A stretch of DNA of 64,000 bases from Frigoribacterium sp. PhB116. GTDB lineage: Bacteria; Actinomycetota; Actinomycetes; Actinomycetales; Microbacteriaceae. The stretch is from contig NZ_SOBE01000003.1 of NCBI RefSeq assembly GCF_004364285.1, forward strand, positions 124,001 to 188,000, written 5' to 3'. Below are positions 37,212 through 55,325 of this stretch, one piece after another. Below the pieces are notes generated by a model, which saw only the letters and a list, made by a program, of their open reading frames with translations, was not told the DNA's origin and ran no database searches. A program made the translations under genes and the position numbers. Each line of letters starts with the position of its first letter. The stretch's first letter is position 1.

Positions 37212-39386
37212 TCAGCCGCGCAGGCGGGCCGCCCTGCGACGGGCGCGGACCAGCAGCACGGCGCCGAGGGCGACGAGTCCGCCAGCGAGGGGCAGGGCCC
37301 AGGAGACCAGCTCCGAGCCGGTGTAGGCCAGGCCGTCGCGGGTCGTGCCGGCTGCGGTCGACGTGCCCGCGCCTCCTGCGCCGTTCCCGGATCCCGGGGC
37401 GCCCGCGCCCGGCGTGCCGGCACCGGCGCCGGCGCCTGCGCCCGGCGCACCCGCGCCGTCGCCCGGCGCGACGACCGGCGGGTCCACCACGACCGGCGGC
37501 ACGACGACGGGCGGCTCGACCGCCGCGGGCACCGTGATCGCGAAGAGCGTCGTCGTGCCCGAGACCTCGTTGCCGACGGCGAGCATGGGCTCGCCGGTCG
37601 CCGAGTCGGCGGCGGGGATGAACGCGAGCCCCTCCGGTCCGAGGTCGCCCGCGGCCGACAGCGCGGCCGGCGAGGCGTCGGCCGGCGGCGCCGTGAAGTC
37701 CCGGTTGTTGACGTAGGCCACGAAGGAGGCGGCGGTCGGCACGGTCACGTCGTAGACGGCGATCCCGCCCACGCGCTCGAAGCCGATGAAGGCGTAGGTG
37801 CGTCCGTCGATCTCGCCCAGGGCGACGCCCTCCGGCTCGGGTCCCTTGTCGTCGCTGCGGCCGTCGAGGGCCGACTCCGTGTGGTTCGAGTTGAAGAACT
37901 CGGGCGCGGCGGCCGCGGTGATCTCCTCGAAGTCGGAGCCCGAGTCGAAGACCTGCTGACCGCTCGCGTCGAGGATGCTGAACGACCGCGACCCGAACGT
38001 GTAGAGGGTCTCGTAGCAGGAGCCGTCGGCGCTGAGGCCGTTCGCCGTGGTGACGTTGAGGCGGCCGAGCGCGGCGGGCGCCAGCGAGCCGGCGGCGGGC
38101 GACGTGGCGCAGACCGGCGGGACGCCGCCCCGGCCGAGGGCGCTGACCCGCGACACCTCGCTGTAGCCGTCCCAGTCGCGCGAGTCGCCCTCGTTCGCCG
38201 TGACGACGTAGGTCGAGCCGCCGACCTCGTAGCTGGCGATCGTGTCGGGCATCAGGTAGCCCTCGACGCCGGCCCAGGTGCCGATGGCGATCGCGGGGCC
38301 GCCGCCGGCACCGTCACGGTCGGACGGGTCGAAGGGCACCACCGCGCGGTCGACGGTGCCGAGCGGCACGACCTCGGCGACGGTCGCCGAGGCGACGTCG
38401 ACGATCGCGAGGGCGTTCGCCTCCTGCAACGAGACCCACGCGGTCGCGCCGTCGGCCGAGAAGGTGGCGTACTCGGGCTCGAGGTTCTCGCTCACGGGGA
38501 ACAGCAGGGGCGACTCGGGCGTGACGGTGCCGGCATCCGCACGGCCGCCGAAGATCCGCACCTCGGGGTCGAGCACCGAGCTGCCGCCCGCCTCGAAGTC
38601 GTGGAAGTCGGCTGTGCTGACGGCCGACTGCGCGGGCGCGGAGACGGTCGCGGGCGCCTCGACGATGCTGATCGTGCCCTCGGGGTCGACCGAGTAGTCC
38701 TCGGCGGGCTCGCCCTCGTTCGCGACGATCACCCGGGCGCCGTCGGGGCTGAAGGCGACCATGTCGGGCAGCGAGCCGACGCGCACGGCGCCCAGGGCAC
38801 CTCCGTCGCCCGCGGCGTCGAAGAAGACGACCCAGCCGAGGTCGGTCTTGTCGTCGCTCTCGACGGCGACGGCGCCGAGGCCGTCGGCCCGCACCGAGAC
38901 CGAGTTGGCGACGGCGCCCGCGGGCACGACCGAGCCGTCGGCGGCCGTGACGCCCGTGGTCTGCACCGTGAAGCCGGCCGAGACGGGCGCTGAGGGCGTG
39001 CCGACGTCGAGGACCTCGACGACCGCCTCCGCCGCGTTGACGACGAGGAGGCGGTGCAGCGTCTCGCCGGAGGCGTCCCGCGCCGGGCCGGTCCAGTGCT
39101 CGACGATCTCGGCGGCGCTGGCGTCGAAGGTGCCGGTCTCGTACGAGCCGACCGGCTGCAGGTCGAAGGCCTCCTGGTCGGCGAAGACCTCGATCGGGGC
39201 CGCGACGACGGCCGCGCTCGCGGGCGCCGAGAGGCCGATCAGGCCGGCGGCGGCGAGGGCCGCGGTGCCGGTGAGGGCGACGGTGCCGAGCGGGCGCCGG
39301 ACGCGGGCGGCCCGCGAAGGGGTCGAGGCAGCGGCCGGTGCGGAGGACGGTGTCGTGGGGCGGGAGGCCGGGCGGCGTGCGCGCAT
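37212..39386 (-). CDS. Choice-of-anchor I family surface protein with LAYTG sorting signal
   Basis: 724 residues. After a signal peptide (hydrophobic TVALTGTAALAAAGLIGLSA ending near ASA), the body is a beta-propeller-like region with VRVGSLPDMVAFSPDGARVI, ANEGEPAEDYSVDPEGTISI, EPEYATFSADGATAWVSLQE and NEGDSRDWDGYSEVSRV. These match the choice-of-anchor I family, often labelled phytase- or alkaline-phosphatase-like. A PV/PG-rich linker (about 630-680) leads to LAYTG (686-690), one helix and RARRRAARLRG. It is probably attached to peptidoglycan by a class E sortase. Enzyme activity is not certain. Confidence 0.87.
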   Translation of the reverse strand: MRARRPASRPTTPSSAPAAASTPSRAARVRRPLGTVALTGTAALAAAGLIGLSAPASAAVVAAPIEVFADQEAFDLQPVGSYETGTFDASAAEIVEHWTGPARDASGETLHRLLVVNAAEAVVEVLDVGTPSAPVSAGFTVQTTGVTAADGSVVPAGAVANSVSVRADGLGAVAVESDDKTDLGWVVFFDAAGDGGALGAVRVGSLPDMVAFSPDGARVIVANEGEPAEDYSVDPEGTISIVEAPATVSAPAQSAVSTADFHDFEAGGSSVLDPEVRIFGGRADAGTVTPESPLLFPVSENLEPEYATFSADGATAWVSLQEANALAIVDVASATVAEVVPLGTVDRAVVPFDPSDRDGAGGGPAIAIGTWAGVEGYLMPDTIASYEVGGSTYVVTANEGDSRDWDGYSEVSRVSALGRGGVPPVCATSPAAGSLAPAALGRLNVTTANGLSADGSCYETLYTFGSRSFSILDASGQQVFDSGSDFEEITAAAAPEFFNSNHTESALDGRSDDKGPEPEGVALGEIDGRTYAFIGFERVGGIAVYDVTVPTAASFVAYVNNRDFTAPPADASPAALSAAGDLGPEGLAFIPAADSATGEPMLAVGNEVSGTTTLFAITVPAAVEPPVVVPPVVVDPPVVAPGDGAGAPGAGAGAGAGTPGAGAPGSGNGAGGAGTSTAAGTTRDGLAYTGSELVSWALPLAGGLVALGAVLLVRARRRAARLRG

Positions 39387-48209: not shown

Positions 48210-48740
48210 TCAGCGGAACGACGCCGCGACCCCGTTGCGGTGGTAGTCGAAGACGATGCTCGTGCGGGTCGAGGCGACCGACGGCTGGGCGGAGAGGTGG
48301 TCGACCACGAAGGTGCGGATCTCGCTCGAGTCTGCCACGGCGATGTGCACGATGAAGTCGTCGTGCCCGCCGAGGAAGAACACCTGCAGCACCTGCGGCA
48401 GGCTCCGCACGGCCTCCGAGAAGGCGGTGATGGCGGCCTGCCGCGACCCCGGCCGCAGGGTCACGCCGACGATCGCCTGCAGCGGCAGCCCGAGGCTCCG
48501 CTGGTCGATGCTCGTCAGGAACCCCGTCACCACCCCGCGGTCGATCAGCGAGCGCAGCCGCACGTGCGCGGTCGAGGGCGCGACGCCCACCGCCGCGGCG
48601 AGCGCGGCGTTCGAGATGCGCGCGTCCGTCCCGAGCACGTCGAGGAGGCGCAGGTCGAGCTCGTCGAGCGGGCCGGGGGCACGAAGATCGTTCGGCCCTG
48701 CACTCGCGGGGACGTCTTCTCTCGGGTCGGATGCAGCCAT
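48210..48740 (-). CDS. Lrp/AsnC-family regulator of alanine dehydrogenase
   Basis: 176 residues. The N-terminal helix-turn-helix (about 27-75) has LDELDLRLLDVLGTDARISN and VAPSTAHVRLRSLIDRGVVTGF (here APSTAHVRLRSLIDRGVV). The C-terminal RAM domain includes AIVGVTLRPGSRQ and VFFLGGHDDFIVHIAV. It is divergent from ald. In actinobacteria this arrangement matches AldR/AdeR, which control ald in response to alanine. A perfect 19-bp inverted repeat lies in the shared promoter. Confidence 0.88.
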   Translation of the reverse strand: MAASDPREDVPASAGPNDLRAPGPLDELDLRLLDVLGTDARISNAALAAAVGVAPSTAHVRLRSLIDRGVVTGFLTSIDQRSLGLPLQAIVGVTLRPGSRQAAITAFSEAVRSLPQVLQVFFLGGHDDFIVHIAVADSSEIRTFVVDHLSAQPSVASTRTSIVFDYHRNGVAASFR

Positions 48741-48744
48741 GGGG

Positions 48745-48763
48745 GCATCTTCGCAGAAGATGC
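48745..48763. promoter_or_regulatory. Probable Lrp/AdeR operator in the ald promoter
   Basis: GCATCTTC-GCA-GAAGATGC, a perfect 8-3-8 palindrome just ahead of the Lrp-type gene and 100 bp before ald. Lrp-family sites commonly have this size and symmetry. Confidence 0.65.
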
Positions 48764-48862
48764 TTCGGTCGAAACAGGTCCGAAACGAACGATCGCCACG
48801 ATCGGGTCACACTGGATGAGCAGGGTCGCGACGAGGCGCTCCTGACGAAGATCGGAGCAATC

Positions 48863-49975
48863 GTGCGCGTCGGAGTCCCCACCGAGATCAAGAACAACGA
48901 GAACCGGGTGGCCCTCACGCCCGCCGGGGCCGACGCCCTGGTGCGCCGGGGCCACGAGGTGCTCGTGCAGGCAGGCGCGGGGCTCGGCTCGCGCATCCAC
49001 GACGAGGACTTCGCCGCCGTCGGCGCGACGATCGTCGCGACCGCCGACGAGGTCTGGGCCGCCGCCGACCTGCTGCTCAAGGTCAAGGAGCCGATCGCGT
49101 CCGAGCACCGCCACCTGCGCGCCGACCAGGTCGTCTTCACCTACCTGCACCTCGCCGCCGACCGGCCCCTGACGGAGGCGCTGGTCGCCTCGGGCACGAC
49201 CGCGATCGCCTACGAGACGGTGCAGCTGCCCGACCGCTCGCTGCCGCTGCTGCAGCCGATGAGCGAGGTGGCAGGGCGCCTGTCGATCACGGTCGGGGCG
49301 TACCACCTGATGCGCGCCTCCGGCGGTCGCGGCACCCTGCTCGGCGGCGTGCCCGGCACGCCGGCCGCGAAGGTCGTCGTGATCGGCGGCGGGGTCGCCG
49401 GCGAGCACGCGGCCGCGAACGCCCTCGGCCTGGGCGCGGACGTGACCGTGGTCGACCTGTCGCTGCCGCGCCTCCGTGCGCTCGAGTCGCGCTTCGACGG
49501 CCGGGTCGCCACGCGGCACTCGTCGCCGTTCGAGATCGCCGCACAGGTGCGCGAGGCCGACCTCGTGATCGGCTCCGTGCTGATCCCGGGGGCGGCGGCG
49601 CCGAAGCTCGTCACCGACGAGATGGTCGCGACGATGAAGCCGGGCGCCGTGCTCGTCGACATCGCGATCGACCAGGGCGGCTGCTTCGAGGGGTCGCGGC
49701 CGACCACCCACGACGACCCCACCTTCGCCGTGCACGACACGGTCTACTACTGCGTCGCGAACATGCCGGGCGCCGTGCCCGAGACGTCGACGCGCGCCCT
49801 GACCAACGCGACGCTGCCGTACGTGGTGGCGGTGGCCGACCAGGGCTGGGAGGCGGCCACGGCGACGGACCCGGCCCTCGCCGCCGGGCTCAACGTCGTC
49901 GCCGGCGCGGTCGTCGCGCCGGGCGTCGCCGCCGCGCTCGGGATGCCGCTCGGGGCGCTGCCCGCGCGGGCCTGA
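48863..49975 (+). CDS. ald: Alanine dehydrogenase
   Basis: 370 residues, the expected length. The N-terminus [20 protein letters not shown] is diagnostic; VKEPIASEH carries the substrate-binding Lys, FTYLHLAA the catalytic His, and [15 protein letters not shown] the NAD-binding loop. It interconverts alanine and pyruvate with ammonia, useful for nitrogen and redox balance. A GTG at 48863 has GGAG 6 bp upstream. It is divergently transcribed from an Lrp-type regulator. A 25-bp perfect palindrome follows as terminator. Confidence 0.95.
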
Positions 49976-50005
49976 CTCTGCCGCCCCGAGTGTGAGCCAC
50001 GCCTC

Positions 50006-50065
50006 GAACCGCGTTCCGAACCATGAACCGCGAAATAACTCGGTTCATGGTTCGGAACGCGGTTC
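50006..50065. terminator. Perfect 25-bp palindrome after ald
   Basis: Arms 50006-50030 and 50041-50065 are complementary at all 25 positions (GAACCGCGTTCCGAACC inward), separated by the 10-nt AT-rich loop CGAAATAACT. Total length is 60 bp, like other palindromes here. Far longer than needed for termination. Confidence 0.8.
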
Positions 50066-50141
50066 TTCAGGGGCTGAGGCCGGCGTCGAGGAGGGCAGGG
50101 GCGAGCGTCCAGGAGGCGGGACCGACGACACGCCGGAGCGG

Positions 50142-50213: not shown

Positions 50214-50486
50214 ATGAACATCTCCACGACCCGATCGGCCGTCGCGCTCTGGTTCGTCGACGGCACGCCCGACCGGCTCGTGCACGACGGCACCCGGTGG
50301 CGCGTGACGGACACCCCGACCGAGATGTGGCACGAGCCGGCCTTCGTGCCCGCGCTCATCACGCACCCGCCACAGCAGTTCGTGGGGTGGCGGTTCCAGG
50401 CCACCGACGGCGTCGGCACGACGCACATGTTCGAGGTGCTCCGCGACGGCGCGGGGCAGTGGGTGCTCGGCCGCGTCTACGACTAA
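50214..50486 (+). CDS. Small SOS-regulated protein, DUF6504-like
   Basis: 90 residues. The order of motifs (a short lead, DRLVHDGTRWRVTDTPTEMW, then HPPQQFVGWRFQATDGVGT and FEVLRDGAGQWVLGRVYD) resembles the C-terminal part of DUF6504, small proteins found beside imuB and dnaE2 in actinobacteria. That resemblance is from memory and not certain. Here it stands alone, without a Y-family polymerase nearby. A perfect LexA box and a promoter lie just upstream. It is probably part of the DNA damage response. Confidence 0.65.
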   Translation: MNISTTRSAVALWFVDGTPDRLVHDGTRWRVTDTPTEMWHEPAFVPALITHPPQQFVGWRFQATDGVGTTHMFEVLRDGAGQWVLGRVYD

Positions 50487-50533: not shown

Positions 50534-50965
50534 TCACTCGAGGCGCTTGCGCTTCTCCACCTCGACCTCGAGGGCGCGCAGGCGGGCCTGCTGCTCGTGG
50601 AACTCGATCTCGCGGTCGAGGTCGGCGAGCTGCTCCTCGGTCGTCTTCCGGCGCGGGGCGGTCGGCTGCGACGACCACGAGGAGGCGCGACGTGAGCCCC
50701 CGAAGCCGGCGCGCTCCGATCGTCGCGGGTCCCCGAACGAGACGTTCTCGGACGAGCGCCCCCCGAACGACCCCGCCGCACGGGTGGCGCTCCAGTCGTG
50801 GCCGACGATGAACCACAGGGCGCTGCCGAGCAGCGGCACGAACACGACGAGCAGGACCCAGACGAGCTTGGGCAGCCCGCGCACCTGCGAGTCATCGCGC
50901 GACACGATGTCGACGAGGGCGATCAGGCTGACGGCGAACATCGCCACGGTGAAGAGGACGTACAC
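50534..50965 (-). CDS. PLDc_N-type membrane protein
   Basis: 143 residues. Two membrane helices (VYVLFTVAMFAVSLIALVDI and KLVWVLLVVFVPLLGSALWF) are linked by a short loop with RDDSQVRGLP, a signature of the PLD nuclease N-terminal (PLDc_N) family. A polar tail ends in a coiled-coil-like segment (EEQLADLDREIEFHEQQARL). The GTG at 50965 lies 7 bp after TAGGCT (50973-50978, minus strand), so the transcript is probably leaderless; a longer start would cross that -10. Confidence 0.75.
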   Translation of the reverse strand: MYVLFTVAMFAVSLIALVDIVSRDDSQVRGLPKLVWVLLVVFVPLLGSALWFIVGHDWSATRAAGSFGGRSSENVSFGDPRRSERAGFGGSRRASSWSSQPTAPRRKTTEEQLADLDREIEFHEQQARLRALEVEVEKRKRLE

Positions 50966-51060
50966 GGTCGGGAGCCTAGCGATCGCCCTGGCCTCGACGC
51001 GAGGGGCCGACGCACCCAGCCCGGGGGTGACCGCAAGGTGCGCGAGCCTCCCCCACAGCG

Positions 51061-51242
51061 TGTGGAGAAGCATGTGGAAAACGTGTGTCGAGAGCGACTC
51101 TTTCGGGGGATAACCGAGGGAAGCTGTGGACTACTGTGTGGAAATTACACGGCTGTAACTTACATACGCGTCTCTGACCAGGGCTTTTGTGACGCTGTCA
51201 CTTGTGGATAAGTCCACAGGTGCAGCGCCTCCTTCATCCACA
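51061..51242. other. DnaA-box cluster (candidate replication-initiation or DnaA-titration locus)
   Basis: Within a 539-bp gene-free stretch (50966-51504) seven 9-mers resemble the DnaA box TTATCCACA, read on either strand: 51061-51069 (TGTGGAGAA), 51073-51081 (TGTGGAAAA), 51125-51133 (TGTGGACTA), 51137-51145 (TGTGGAAAT), 51203-51211 (TGTGGATAA, perfect), 51210-51218 (AAGTCCACA) and 51234-51242 (TCATCCACA). The first five point one way and the last two the other. An AT-rich patch (GAAATTACAC to ACTTACATACG, 51141-51178) lies between. The remainder of the gap, 51243-51504, shows only the TetR promoter. dnaA, dnaN and rpmH are not in the window. Confidence 0.6.
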
Positions 51243-51504
51243 GCTGGGCCGTCCGCGCACGGCGGGACGGCGAGACGGCCTCGCGCTGGGCCGTTCAGCG
51301 GGCAGCCCGGGAGGAGGGACGGGACCGAGCGCGCGGGGCGGCGGCTCGTTCGGGCGGCCTCGCTCGACGCGCGCTCGGTCGTTCCTGGTGTCTCGGGTCC
51401 ACCAGGCAGGATGATCCTAGCGGGTGGATACCCGCCAGTATGCAACGGATCCCGGCCCTGCGCGCCGCAGACGACAGCCGTCGCCCGGACGTTAGGGTGA
51501 CGAC

Positions 51505-52137
51505 ATGTCCACGACCGGGAGCGCCCCCACCAAGCGCCCTCCGCGCGCCGAGGTGCGCGAGCGCCTGATCGAGGCGGCGAGCCGGCTCTTCGCGCGCCAC
51601 GGCGTCCACGCGACGACCCTCGACGATGTGGCCAAGGCGGCCGGGTTCAGCAAGGGCGCGGTCTACTCGAACTTCGACTCCAAGGCCGACCTCGTCGTGA
51701 CCCTGCTGCGTCGGGAGACGGACGGCGCGCTCCGGGCCCTGCACGAGATGCGCGTGCCCGGCACCGACCTGCCCGATCTTCCCGCGGCGATCCGCGCGGC
51801 CTTCGCCCCCTACGGCCCGGGCACGGCCGACGACTTCAGCCTGATGTCCGAGCTCCGCTCGCAGGCGCTCGCCGAGCCGCGCGTCATGGAGGTCTTCGTC
51901 GAGCAGCGCCGGGCCGTGCTCGACACGCTGCGCGGCCTCGTCGACCAGGTGTTCCAGGGACGCACGCCCGACGCGACCGGGCTCTCCTCCGACCAGCTGG
52001 CGCGCCTCCTCATCACCATCTCGGTCGGCTCCGCCTTCGACGCGCCCGCCACCGGTGACGTCGCGCCCGGCGACCTGATGGGCGACGTCGTCGCGGCGCT
52101 GCTGCGCCCCGTGACGGGCGGCTCCCCCGCGGCCTGA
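51505..52137 (+). CDS. TetR-family transcriptional regulator
   Basis: 210 residues. The helix-turn-helix is at about 15-60, with LFARHGVHATTLDDVAKAAG and SKGAVYSNFDSKADLV. The C-terminal ligand-binding domain is unassigned (LMSELRSQALAEPRVM is typical of the TetR_C_6-like group). TAGGGT (51493-51498) is 6 bp before the ATG, a leaderless arrangement. No adjacent target on the same strand; its target may be the convergent permease or an unlinked gene. Confidence 0.85.
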   Translation: MSTTGSAPTKRPPRAEVRERLIEAASRLFARHGVHATTLDDVAKAAGFSKGAVYSNFDSKADLVVTLLRRETDGALRALHEMRVPGTDLPDLPAAIRAAFAPYGPGTADDFSLMSELRSQALAEPRVMEVFVEQRRAVLDTLRGLVDQVFQGRTPDATGLSSDQLARLLITISVGSAFDAPATGDVAPGDLMGDVVAALLRPVTGGSPAA

Positions 52138-53880: not shown

Positions 53881-55257
53881 TCAGGCCCCGAGGGCCAGGC
53901 CCGTCCGGTACGCGGCCAGCGCGGCGGCGGGCACGTCGGCGAGGTCGTCGAGGCGCACGAGCTCGCCCGGGGCGACGTCGGCCACGAGCCGCGCGCCGCT
54001 GAGCAGGTAGTACGGCGCGACGCCGTGGTCGTCGGGATCGACGATGACGGGTGCGGCGCCGGCGATCTCGTGGTGGTGCCCCTCGACGCGGAACGTCGTG
54101 CCCGCGGCGAGCGCCGAGCTCGACCGTGCGGCCAGCACCGTGTGCTGCCGGGGCTGGGCGACGGACGACCCGCCGTCGACGGCTGCCGCGATGGTCAGCG
54201 GGGTCTCGACGCCCATGAAGTGGTACGGCCAGTAGATGCAGGCGTACCGGCCGTCGCGGCTGACGACGTGGCCCTTGCCTCGCAGGGTCTCCCACGTGAC
54301 GGGGTCGCCCGTCCGGACGACGACGAAGACGCCGCCGGCGAAGCTGGCCTCGCCGGGCAGGCGGAGCATCGAGAACACGTCGACGCTGCCGGTGCGGCCG
54401 ATCAGGCCGCCGTCCTCGCGGGTGGCGTAGAGGTCGGCGAGCTCGTGCGGCCGGGCGACGGGGTAGTGCATGCCCTCGACGTCGGCGCGCGCGCCGGTGT
54501 AGAGCGACACCACGGTCATCTCGCAGTGGTCGGCCGCGGCGCTGCGCTTGAGCGAGGCGACCTGGGCGGCCCGCGCCTCCACCGTCTCGAGGGGGCTGTC
54601 GCCGAGCTCGAGCAGGTCGGCGAGCCCGGGGGCGTGGATGGTCGTGCCGGCCTGGTCGACGACGCCGGTGGCCGGGTCGAAGGCGAGGTCGTACTCGCTC
54701 GACTTGCCGAGGGCGACGATGTCGAAGCCGCAGTCGAGCACCCACGCGACGAGGCGCAGCAGGTTCGCGGGCTGGTCGCCGTCGCCGGGCAGGTAGCGGA
54801 GGCCGGCGGCGCGGGCCTTGGCGCTGAGGGCGACGCCGGCGACGGACTCGATCTCCTTGCTGACCATGACGACGTGCACGCCGTGGTCGAGGGCCGTGTC
54901 GGCGTAGCCGTGGCCGGCCTCGATGCGCCCGGTGGCCTCGACCAGCACGTCGGCGGCGCTCCAGTCGACGGCGGCGCCGTCGGCGATCACGGCGACCTGG
55001 CCGGCGGCGAGCGCCGCGGTCGTCTCGGCGACGGTGGAGGGGGTCGCGACGCGGTCGGCGGGGACGCCGAGCTCGTCGAGCATCCGCGTGGTGCCGGCGA
55101 CGTCGGGATCGACGAGCTGGGTCGCGACCATGTCGTCGAGCCGGCGCAGCTGGTCGAGCAGGGTGCGGCCGTACCCGCCGTTCGCTCCGGTGAGGAGGAC
55201 GCGGACCGGGGTCTCGCGGGCCTGGGTCGCGCGGCGCGACGTCGAGTGGAGGATCAC
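53881..55257 (-). CDS. Homoserine dehydrogenase-like oxidoreductase with SAF domain
   Basis: 458 residues. The N-terminal NAD-binding part (VRVLLTGANGGYGRTLLDQL, then VDVLVEATGRIEAGHGYAD-like DVLVEATGRIEAGHGYAD) resembles homoserine dehydrogenase domain 1, and KSSEYDLAFDP and HVVMVSKEIESVAGV follow. The C-terminal part (from about 380) is a SAF-like domain, with LAAGTTFRVEGHHHEI and ELVRLDDLADVP. This domain pairing is found next to four-carbon acid sugar kinases. I infer it oxidises a tetronate-type acid to the keto acid for OtnK. It is divergent from otnK over a shared promoter. Confidence 0.75.
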   Translation of the reverse strand: MILHSTSRRATQARETPVRVLLTGANGGYGRTLLDQLRRLDDMVATQLVDPDVAGTTRMLDELGVPADRVATPSTVAETTAALAAGQVAVIADGAAVDWSAADVLVEATGRIEAGHGYADTALDHGVHVVMVSKEIESVAGVALSAKARAAGLRYLPGDGDQPANLLRLVAWVLDCGFDIVALGKSSEYDLAFDPATGVVDQAGTTIHAPGLADLLELGDSPLETVEARAAQVASLKRSAAADHCEMTVVSLYTGARADVEGMHYPVARPHELADLYATREDGGLIGRTGSVDVFSMLRLPGEASFAGGVFVVVRTGDPVTWETLRGKGHVVSRDGRYACIYWPYHFMGVETPLTIAAAVDGGSSVAQPRQHTVLAARSSSALAAGTTFRVEGHHHEIAGAAPVIVDPDDHGVAPYYLLSGARLVADVAPGELVRLDDLADVPAAALAAYRTGLALGA

Positions 55258-55325
55258 CGTTGTTCCCGTTCGTTCGAGGTGGCCTGTCGTCCGAGAGGGA
55301 TCGGTCGGCCGGGGCTTCGTGGGCA

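What the first reader, a model, noticed from the sequence alone, without database searches (positions are those of the whole stretch)
50966..51504. DnaA-box cluster in a 539-bp gene-free region with no dnaA nearby
Seven 9-mers that match the DnaA box at 7-9 of 9 positions lie within 182 bp (51061-51242), one of them perfect (TGTGGATAA). An AT-rich patch lies inside the cluster, in a genome that is otherwise very GC-rich. Canonical oriC in this family adjoins dnaA, dnaN and rpmH, and none of these is present. Candidate roles are a displaced origin, a DnaA-titration or reactivation site (like datA or DARS), or a DnaA-controlled promoter for one of the two flanking genes.
Basis: partly seen in the sequence, partly recalled or inferred. 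Interest (0 to 1): 0.8.

Follow-up and report, generated by a model that had tools for sequence, protein, structure and literature searches.

The report
Extra DnaA-box cluster outside the origin
An actinobacterium of the genus Frigoribacterium carries, well away from its normal replication origin, a conserved array of probable binding sites for the replication-starter protein DnaA, most likely a site that helps control how often the chromosome is copied.

Summary
It is not an origin: the same genome has an intact rpmH-dnaA-oriC-dnaN locus on another contig. Of 14 exact boxes in the genome, the only pairs within 250 bp are in oriC, upstream of dnaB, and here.

The cluster (W) is in 6 of 16 genus genomes. 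Box columns are kept far better than spacers (40/53 against 15/71 invariant). In the four genomes measured it lies 98-150 kb from oriC, and its downstream gene differs (TetR, crcB, unknown ORF). Its layout matches a dnaB-upstream cluster found by model in all 16 genus genomes; its palindrome (TTACA-N4-TGTAA) recurs downstream of crgA, before nrdHIE and, degenerately, in oriC. The dnaB and crgA regions are DnaA-bound in mycobacteria (PMC7738170).

Best reading: a lineage-specific, non-origin DnaA-binding control site that works like datA or the DnaA-box clusters of Streptomyces and Bacillus. DnaA binding at W and any effect on initiation are inferred, not shown.

The parts
51061..51069 (-). DnaA box TTCTCCACA, first of a pair 12 bp apart
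51073..51081 (-). DnaA box TTTTCCACA, second of the pair
51105..51113 (-). weak DnaA-like box TTATCCCCC (GGGGATAA in 4 of 6 genomes)
51125..51133 (-). DnaA box TAGTCCACA, first of a second pair 12 bp apart
51137..51145 (-). DnaA box ATTTCCACA, abuts the palindrome; TGTGGAAAT the same in 6 of 6 (two of the six were found with this motif)
51145..51158 (.). palindrome TTACA-CGGC-TGTAA, shared with crgA, nrd, whiB-like and (degenerate) oriC sites; binding factor unknown
51175..51188 (+). tail motif TGACCAGGGCTTTT, shared with the dnaB-upstream type of cluster (TGAYCWGS in 21 of 25 sequences)
51203..51211 (-). perfect DnaA box TTATCCACA
51210..51218 (+). weak DnaA box AAGTCCACA (2 mismatches), opposed to the previous one
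51234..51242 (+). DnaA box TCATCCACA
50534..50966 (-). flanking gene with PLDc_N domain (start inferred); not at this place in G001, G004, G007
51505..52137 (+). flanking gene, TetR-family regulator; ortholog in 16 of 16 genus genomes, beside the cluster in 4
50214..50486 (+). small gene without Pfam match that anchors the locus, next to ald, in all 6 genomes that have the cluster
48731..49975 (+). ald, alanine dehydrogenase (longest ORF given); upstream of the small gene in 9 of 16 genus genomes

Best explanation
A non-origin DnaA-binding control site. The boxes, most of them head to tail with two pairs spaced 12 bp, would nucleate a DnaA oligomer. Because the site lies about 100-150 kb from oriC it is duplicated soon after initiation; the two copies then take DnaA away from oriC (titration, or inactivation as at datA) and delay the next round. 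The palindrome next to box 51137 would be the site of a second factor, or of a DnaA pair, that tunes this. Shown: the sequence, its conservation, its relatives, its position. Inferred: DnaA binding at W, sign and size of the effect, the role of the palindrome.
For: Box density far above chance. Box columns 40/53 invariant against 15/71 other columns in six genomes (Fisher p 1e-9); still 32/45 against 14/69 when the stretch used to find two of the genomes is left out, and 46/54 against 21/71 in the four genomes found by plain DNA search. Layout collinear with the dnaB-upstream type of cluster (model R1, E 8e-11 to 6e-8 in all 16 genus genomes; dnaB itself checked in G000). The palindrome is the one found downstream of crgA. 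Regions at crgA and upstream of dnaB are among the five strongest DnaA-bound regions in M. tuberculosis DNA (in vitro) and M. smegmatis (ChIP-seq), PMC7738170 section 9. Downstream genes differ while the cluster stays: TetR (4 genomes), crcB (G004), ORF without Pfam match (G007). Distance from oriC where both are on one contig: 122.5 kb G008, 122.9 G012, 98.1 G004, 149.5 G007, on the rpmH side in all four. PMC4585315 (passages) states that B. subtilis and S. [quoted passage not shown]
Against: Found in only 6 of 16 genus genomes, so it is dispensable at genus level. In every carrier it lies upstream of the next ORF, so a promoter role is not excluded. No binding or replication data for this genus were found. 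The distance from oriC varies by half (98-150 kb).
Confidence: 0.62

Rival explanations
1. A DnaA-regulated promoter region: DnaA bound here represses or activates the TetR gene and/or the PLDc_N gene according to the cell cycle.
For: The cluster lies between two divergent genes, in the expected place for an operator; DnaA is reported to bind the dnaA and dnaB promoter regions (PMC7738170). In G004 and G007 too it lies upstream of the next ORF.
Against: The TetR ortholog exists in 16 of 16 genus genomes and 12 have no boxes upstream; the PLDc_N gene is not beside the cluster in G001, G004 and G007; three different downstream genes. The promoter scan found no sigma-70-like site, but it is a weak test in such a genome.
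Confidence: 0.2
2. A reactivation site of the DARS kind: DnaA-ADP is turned back into DnaA-ATP here, so the site promotes initiation.
For: A compact group of boxes with a conserved accessory site, as at DARS (PMC4585315 passages).
Against: Six to eight mostly head-to-tail boxes rather than a small core (DARS core recalled, not aligned); close to oriC, as PMC4585315 says of datA.
Confidence: 0.1
3. A displaced or second replication origin.
For: Dense boxes plus an AT-richer patch, as in oriC.
Against: One dnaA and an intact, conserved oriC between dnaA and dnaN. The AT-richest 30 bp here is 37% GC against 27% in oriC of the same genome, and the patch consists of the palindrome and boxes. Absent from 10 of 16 genus genomes. 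GC skew around the site in the single-contig genome G008 was too noisy to help.
Confidence: 0.02
4. A decayed copy of the dnaB-upstream cluster with no present function.
For: Layout shared with that cluster; found only in part of one genus.
Against: Boxes are kept while spacers have diverged; kept through loss or exchange of neighbouring genes; it carries a palindrome that the dnaB cluster lacks.
Confidence: 0.06

Closest known systems
DnaA-bound regions of mycobacteria outside oriC (Rv0010c-Rv0011c at crgA, upstream of dnaB, Rv3843c-RVnc0040; Hicks et al. 2020, PMC7738170)
   Same: Clusters of DnaA boxes outside oriC; W has the layout of the Frigoribacterium dnaB-upstream cluster and the palindrome of its crgA-side cluster. 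Rv3843c-RVnc0040 is, by gene numbering, also on the rpmH side of oriC (inference).
   Different: W is at neither the crgA nor the dnaB locus; no binding data for W; the mycobacterial sequences were not fetched or aligned.
DnaA-box clusters near oriC of Streptomyces coelicolor and Bacillus subtilis (Smulczyk-Krawczyszyn 2006, Okumura 2012; seen only as cited in PMC4585315)
   Same: DnaA-box clusters close to but outside oriC in Gram-positive bacteria, reported to repress untimely initiation.
   Different: Sequences not compared; no functional test of W.
datA of Escherichia coli
   Same: Non-coding DnaA-box cluster off the origin, close to oriC, relative position kept within the species (PMC4585315 passages).
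   Different: datA works with IHF to promote ATP hydrolysis; no IHF site was looked for here, and the palindrome has no known binding factor.
DARS1/DARS2 of Escherichia coli
   Same: Non-coding DnaA-binding control site.
   Different: Box arrangement looks different (recalled); reactivation not testable.
oriC of the same genome (C5, dnaA-dnaN)
   Same: DnaA boxes and a degenerate copy of the palindrome (TCACANNNNTGTAG).
   Different: W lacks the dnaA/dnaN context and the AT-rich stretches.

Membership tests
DnaA-box cluster outside oriC (general kind) | box density above chance, away from dnaA/oriC | tested here: met
DnaA-box cluster outside oriC (general kind) | boxes under selective constraint | tested here: met
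   40/53 vs 15/71 invariant columns in six genomes; 32/45 vs 14/69 without the motif-selected stretch
DnaA-box cluster outside oriC (general kind) | bound by DnaA | not testable with these tools
   only corresponding regions in mycobacteria (dnaB, crgA) are known to be bound, PMC7738170
datA | close to oriC at a kept distance | tested here: inconclusive
   98-150 kb in the four genomes measured; same side, but variable
datA | IHF site between the boxes | not tested
   no IHF consensus was searched
datA | DnaA-ATP hydrolysis; extra copies delay and deletion advances initiation | not testable with these tools
   needs biochemistry and a strain
DARS1/DARS2 | small core of three boxes in a set arrangement with accessory sites | tested here: inconclusive
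   one search shows more boxes, mostly head to tail; the E. coli core was recalled, not aligned
oriC | adjoins dnaA/dnaN/rpmH | tested here: not met
oriC | conserved AT-rich unwinding element | tested here: not met
   judged from GC content and alignment only
crgA-side DnaA site | lies next to crgA | tested here: not met
   crgA is at C5:38565 with its own cluster
dnaB-upstream DnaA cluster | lies upstream of dnaB | tested here: not met
   that cluster is at C5:4724-4862 between rplI and dnaB
dnaB-upstream DnaA cluster | order of boxes plus tail motif TGAYCWGS | tested here: met
   (spacer similarity to W p<=0.01 in 14 of the 20 sequences tested, above in 6; 5 of 25 not tested)

The most novel reading that the evidence does not exclude
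Actinomycetes run a multi-site DnaA control system (oriC, crgA side, dnaB, nrdHIE, and optional extra sites such as W) in which a still unknown factor binds TTACA-N4-TGTAA beside the DnaA boxes and couples replication to nucleotide supply and division (the same palindrome stands in front of a whiB-family gene). W would be one lineage's added dose of that system.
Probability: 0.3. Interest if true: 0.78.

Novelty: new variant of a known kind. Interest (0 to 1): 0.55.

Why it matters
PMC7738170 reports two DnaA-bound regions in mycobacteria with no obvious correspondence in other species. The comparison here shows that the crgA-side one, and the dnaB-upstream one, have look-alike clusters in another order (Micrococcales), names a palindrome that goes with several of them, and gives a natural presence/absence series (6 of 16 genomes of one genus) in which the effect of one extra site can be tested directly.

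Tried and rejected
Displaced origin: rejected. Link to the TetR gene: weakened. Structured RNA: only three sub-threshold miRNA matches at 50005-50064, on the hairpin after ald, taken as chance. GC skew in 400 kb of G008: noise. Tandem-hexamer count: 9 in G000 against 10 for the reversed control. First tandem pattern was mis-specified and matched nothing, W included. Palindrome as MtrA site: the MtrA motif is a direct repeat (PMC6265350 passages), this is an inverted repeat; not supported, not excluded. BldD (motif recalled): half-sites alike, spacing differs; not supported. Palindrome TTACATCGTTGTAA near nrd in five species: in the four looked at it lies before a gene whose product looks like a transporter substrate-binding protein (no Pfam run); judged unrelated. 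Single gain of W: the carriers group together only with support 0.665 and an assumed root. Literature: the listings showed no title on DnaA-box clusters of Microbacteriaceae; this is a statement about those listings (open-access library, capped lists) only. Seen of papers: passages of PMC7738170, PMC13270200, PMC6265350 and PMC4585315, and section 9 of PMC7738170.

Full report
Observation. The 539-bp gap between a PLDc_N-domain gene (-) and a TetR gene (+) holds seven DnaA-box-like 9-mers at 51061-51242, six of them with at most one mismatch to TTDTCCACA and one perfect. The rest of the 64-kb window has four such sites, all single. At the genome-wide rate of 251 sites in 3.367 Mb six in 190 bp is not a chance event, and none of 3000 simulated sequences of the same dinucleotide make-up had more than two in 182 bp. 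The core is 52% GC in a 73.5% GC window. The genome-wide total (251) is near that of the reversed control pattern (213), so it is the clustering, not the number, that matters.

Genome context. The genome (G000, 8 contigs) has one dnaA match, on contig C5, with rpmH before it and a box-rich dnaA-dnaN gap after it. That gap is well conserved in the 12 genomes aligned, 10 of the genus and 2 of other genera. The genus is Frigoribacterium (Microbacteriaceae, Micrococcales): a pattern search of named genomes hit four Frigoribacterium records, and their contig lengths equal those of contigs of G001, G004, G007 and G012. Exact TTDTCCACA occurs 14 times in G000; the only pairs within 250 bp are in oriC, at C5:4726/4793 (dnaB-upstream) and in the window cluster. 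The list of one-mismatch sites was cut at 100 of 251 places, so that class was not checked genome-wide. In 400 kb around oriC of the single-contig genome G008 (54 boxes with at most one mismatch) groups of three or more boxes, gaps up to 150 bp, occur at five places: two in the dnaA-dnaN gap, one in rpmH-dnaA, one at the dnaB-upstream cluster and one at W; the crgA-side cluster does not reach three. The loose test TGTGGA-N(0-30)-TGTGGA gave 9 pairs in G000 against 10 for the control; 3 of the 9 are in W, one each in oriC, dnaB-upstream and crgA side, 3 elsewhere.

Conservation of W. A DNA search in 60 relatives found the region in G008, G012 and G001 next to the same TetR gene; a motif search (TGTGGAAATTACANNNNTGTAACT, up to 3 mismatches) then found it in G004 and G007. 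So 6 of 16 genus genomes have it, and model R1 adds no further one. The other 10 have no boxes within the 1.5 kb on either side of the corresponding small gene, and 12 of 16 have none before the TetR ortholog. In the six-genome alignment 40 of 53 box columns are invariant, 9 of 14 palindrome columns, 5 of 13 tail columns and 15 of 71 other columns (six boxes counted, the two + strand ones not). Since two genomes were found with a motif, I left that stretch out: 32 of 45 against 14 of 69 (p 7e-8); in the four genomes found by DNA search alone: 46 of 54 against 21 of 71. The left anchor, ald then a small gene, is the same in all six. The PLDc_N gene is between them and W in G000, G008, G012 and not there in G001, G004, G007. 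The right neighbour is TetR in four, crcB in G004 (Pfam) and an ORF without Pfam match in G007. W thus outlives changes of its neighbours, but in each case stands before the next ORF.

Position. From the dnaA-dnaN gap, W lies at 122.5 kb (G008), 122.9 (G012), 98.1 (G004) and 149.5 kb (G007), on the rpmH side each time. In G000 it is on a different contig from oriC; alignment to G008 places the end of C3 near the start of C5, which gives about 137 kb plus a gap. G001 was not measured (different contigs).

Relatives of W. A sequence-only model of the six clusters (R1) was run on 60 relatives (stricter filters, rough E-values). Besides its six training sequences it found in all 16 genus genomes a collinear cluster (E 8e-11 to 6e-8). 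In the ten genus genomes whose origin I located this lies 21-30 kb from oriC on the rpmH side. In G000 it lies between rplI and dnaB, and G008 aligns there; for the others the dnaB context is inferred. Similar, weaker matches occur in other genera. The tail TGAYCWGS stands in 21 of the 25 sequences printed, at offset 107-109 in 20 of these; it is missing in G034, G025, G045 and G056. Spacer similarity to W was tested in 20 of the 25: p<=0.01 in 14, above in 6, up to 0.84 in G014. This type lacks the palindrome.

The palindrome TTACA-N4-TGTAA. It also stands downstream of crgA with DnaA boxes: palindrome with at most 2 mismatches in 24 of 29 loci looked at and two or more boxes in 23 of 29, against 10 of 2000 and 0 of 2000 random 250-bp pieces of the window (for boxes, pieces over W were left out). 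The 29 are 28 of the 30 CrgA loci fetched (59 of 60 genomes had a match; two loci with short flanks were dropped) plus G011, which came from the motif search and is therefore biased. Four loci (G052, G041, G057, G059) show neither. In G000 the crgA cluster sits between convergent genes, crgA and a rhomboid gene, so there it is not an obvious promoter. Of ten Gordonia loci (Mycobacteriales) hit by the pattern, seven have it right after a gene ending like crgA (one confirmed by Pfam) and three at another place, after a methyltransferase gene in the one tested. The same pattern also hit three records outside these genera (L205, L210, L215): L205 (Actinomycetaceae) has boxes around it, the other two have no cluster. 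A third kind of cluster with the palindrome (one mismatch in G000) lies before a glutaredoxin gene, nrdI and an RNR large-subunit gene in G000; the same flanking sequence is seen in 18 of 20 loci that I chose. It lies 666-767 kb from oriC on the crgA side in the five genomes with both on one contig (G005, G007, G008 across its contig end, G012, G015). oriC has a degenerate copy, TCACANNNNTGTAG, in 11 of the 12 aligned genomes, not in G004. In G000 the strict pattern TACANNNNTGTAAY occurs at four places only: W, crgA, nrd, and before a whiB-family gene; the control pattern gave none in G000, 2 in G006.

What it does. In M. tuberculosis DNA in vitro and in M. [quoted passage not shown] That Rv0011c is crgA is from memory. 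The authors say the Rv0010c-Rv0011c and Rv3843c sites have no obvious correspondence in other species. The crgA-side and dnaB-upstream clusters described here look like counterparts in another order, and were found before that paper was read; the mycobacterial sequences themselves were not compared. W has the layout of one and the palindrome of the other. I therefore take DnaA binding at W as likely (about 0.85) and a role in limiting or timing initiation as the most likely use (0.62), by analogy with datA and with the clusters of B. subtilis and S. coelicolor that can repress untimely initiation (as stated in PMC4585315, passages). The role of the palindrome is open: PMC7738170 describes a palindrome made of two DnaA-box-like sequences at the crgA site, which may or may not be this one; a separate protein is the bolder reading.

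Limits. I found no binding, transcription or replication data for this genus. W is dispensable at genus level. The promoter rival is not excluded. The single-gain history has weak support (0.665).

Noticed in passing
G000 contig C5, about 38440-38530 (L062, L089), downstream of crgA: DnaA-box plus palindrome element in the convergent crgA/rhomboid gap; looks like the counterpart of the mycobacterial crgA-side DnaA site, also after crgA in Gordonia.
   Followed up: yes
G000 contig C5:4724-4862 (L061): DnaA-box cluster between rplI and dnaB with tail motif TGAYCWGS, found by model in all 16 genus genomes; layout like the window cluster.
   Followed up: yes
G000 contig C2:536691-536810 (L154): DnaA-like boxes plus the palindrome before nrdHIE, next to NrdR-like boxes (motif recalled); suggests DnaA control of ribonucleotide reductase.
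   Followed up: partly
G000 contig C1:942527 (L185): Palindrome TTACACCGGTGTAA before a whiB-family gene; the same palindrome is listed in 9 genus genomes, gene context checked in G000 only; no DnaA boxes at the G007 copy (L060).
   Followed up: partly
G034 C1:1117806 (L172): Another genus has its own extra tandem DnaA-box cluster without the palindrome, about 69 kb from its dnaB-type cluster.
   Followed up: no
L206, L207, L209 (Gordonia): A second DnaA-palindrome module away from crgA, after a methyltransferase gene (Pfam in L207 only).
   Followed up: partly
G005, G009, G010, G011, G013, G014, G015: Seven genomes without W have an extra pair of boxes just upstream of crgA and another near the oriC boxes: possible compensation; W carrier G004 also has the oriC one.
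   Followed up: no
window 49999-50066: Long near-perfect inverted repeat just after ald, perhaps a transcription terminator hairpin.
   Followed up: no
window 55194-55293: ARAGORN calls a tRNA-Pro(cgg).
   Followed up: no
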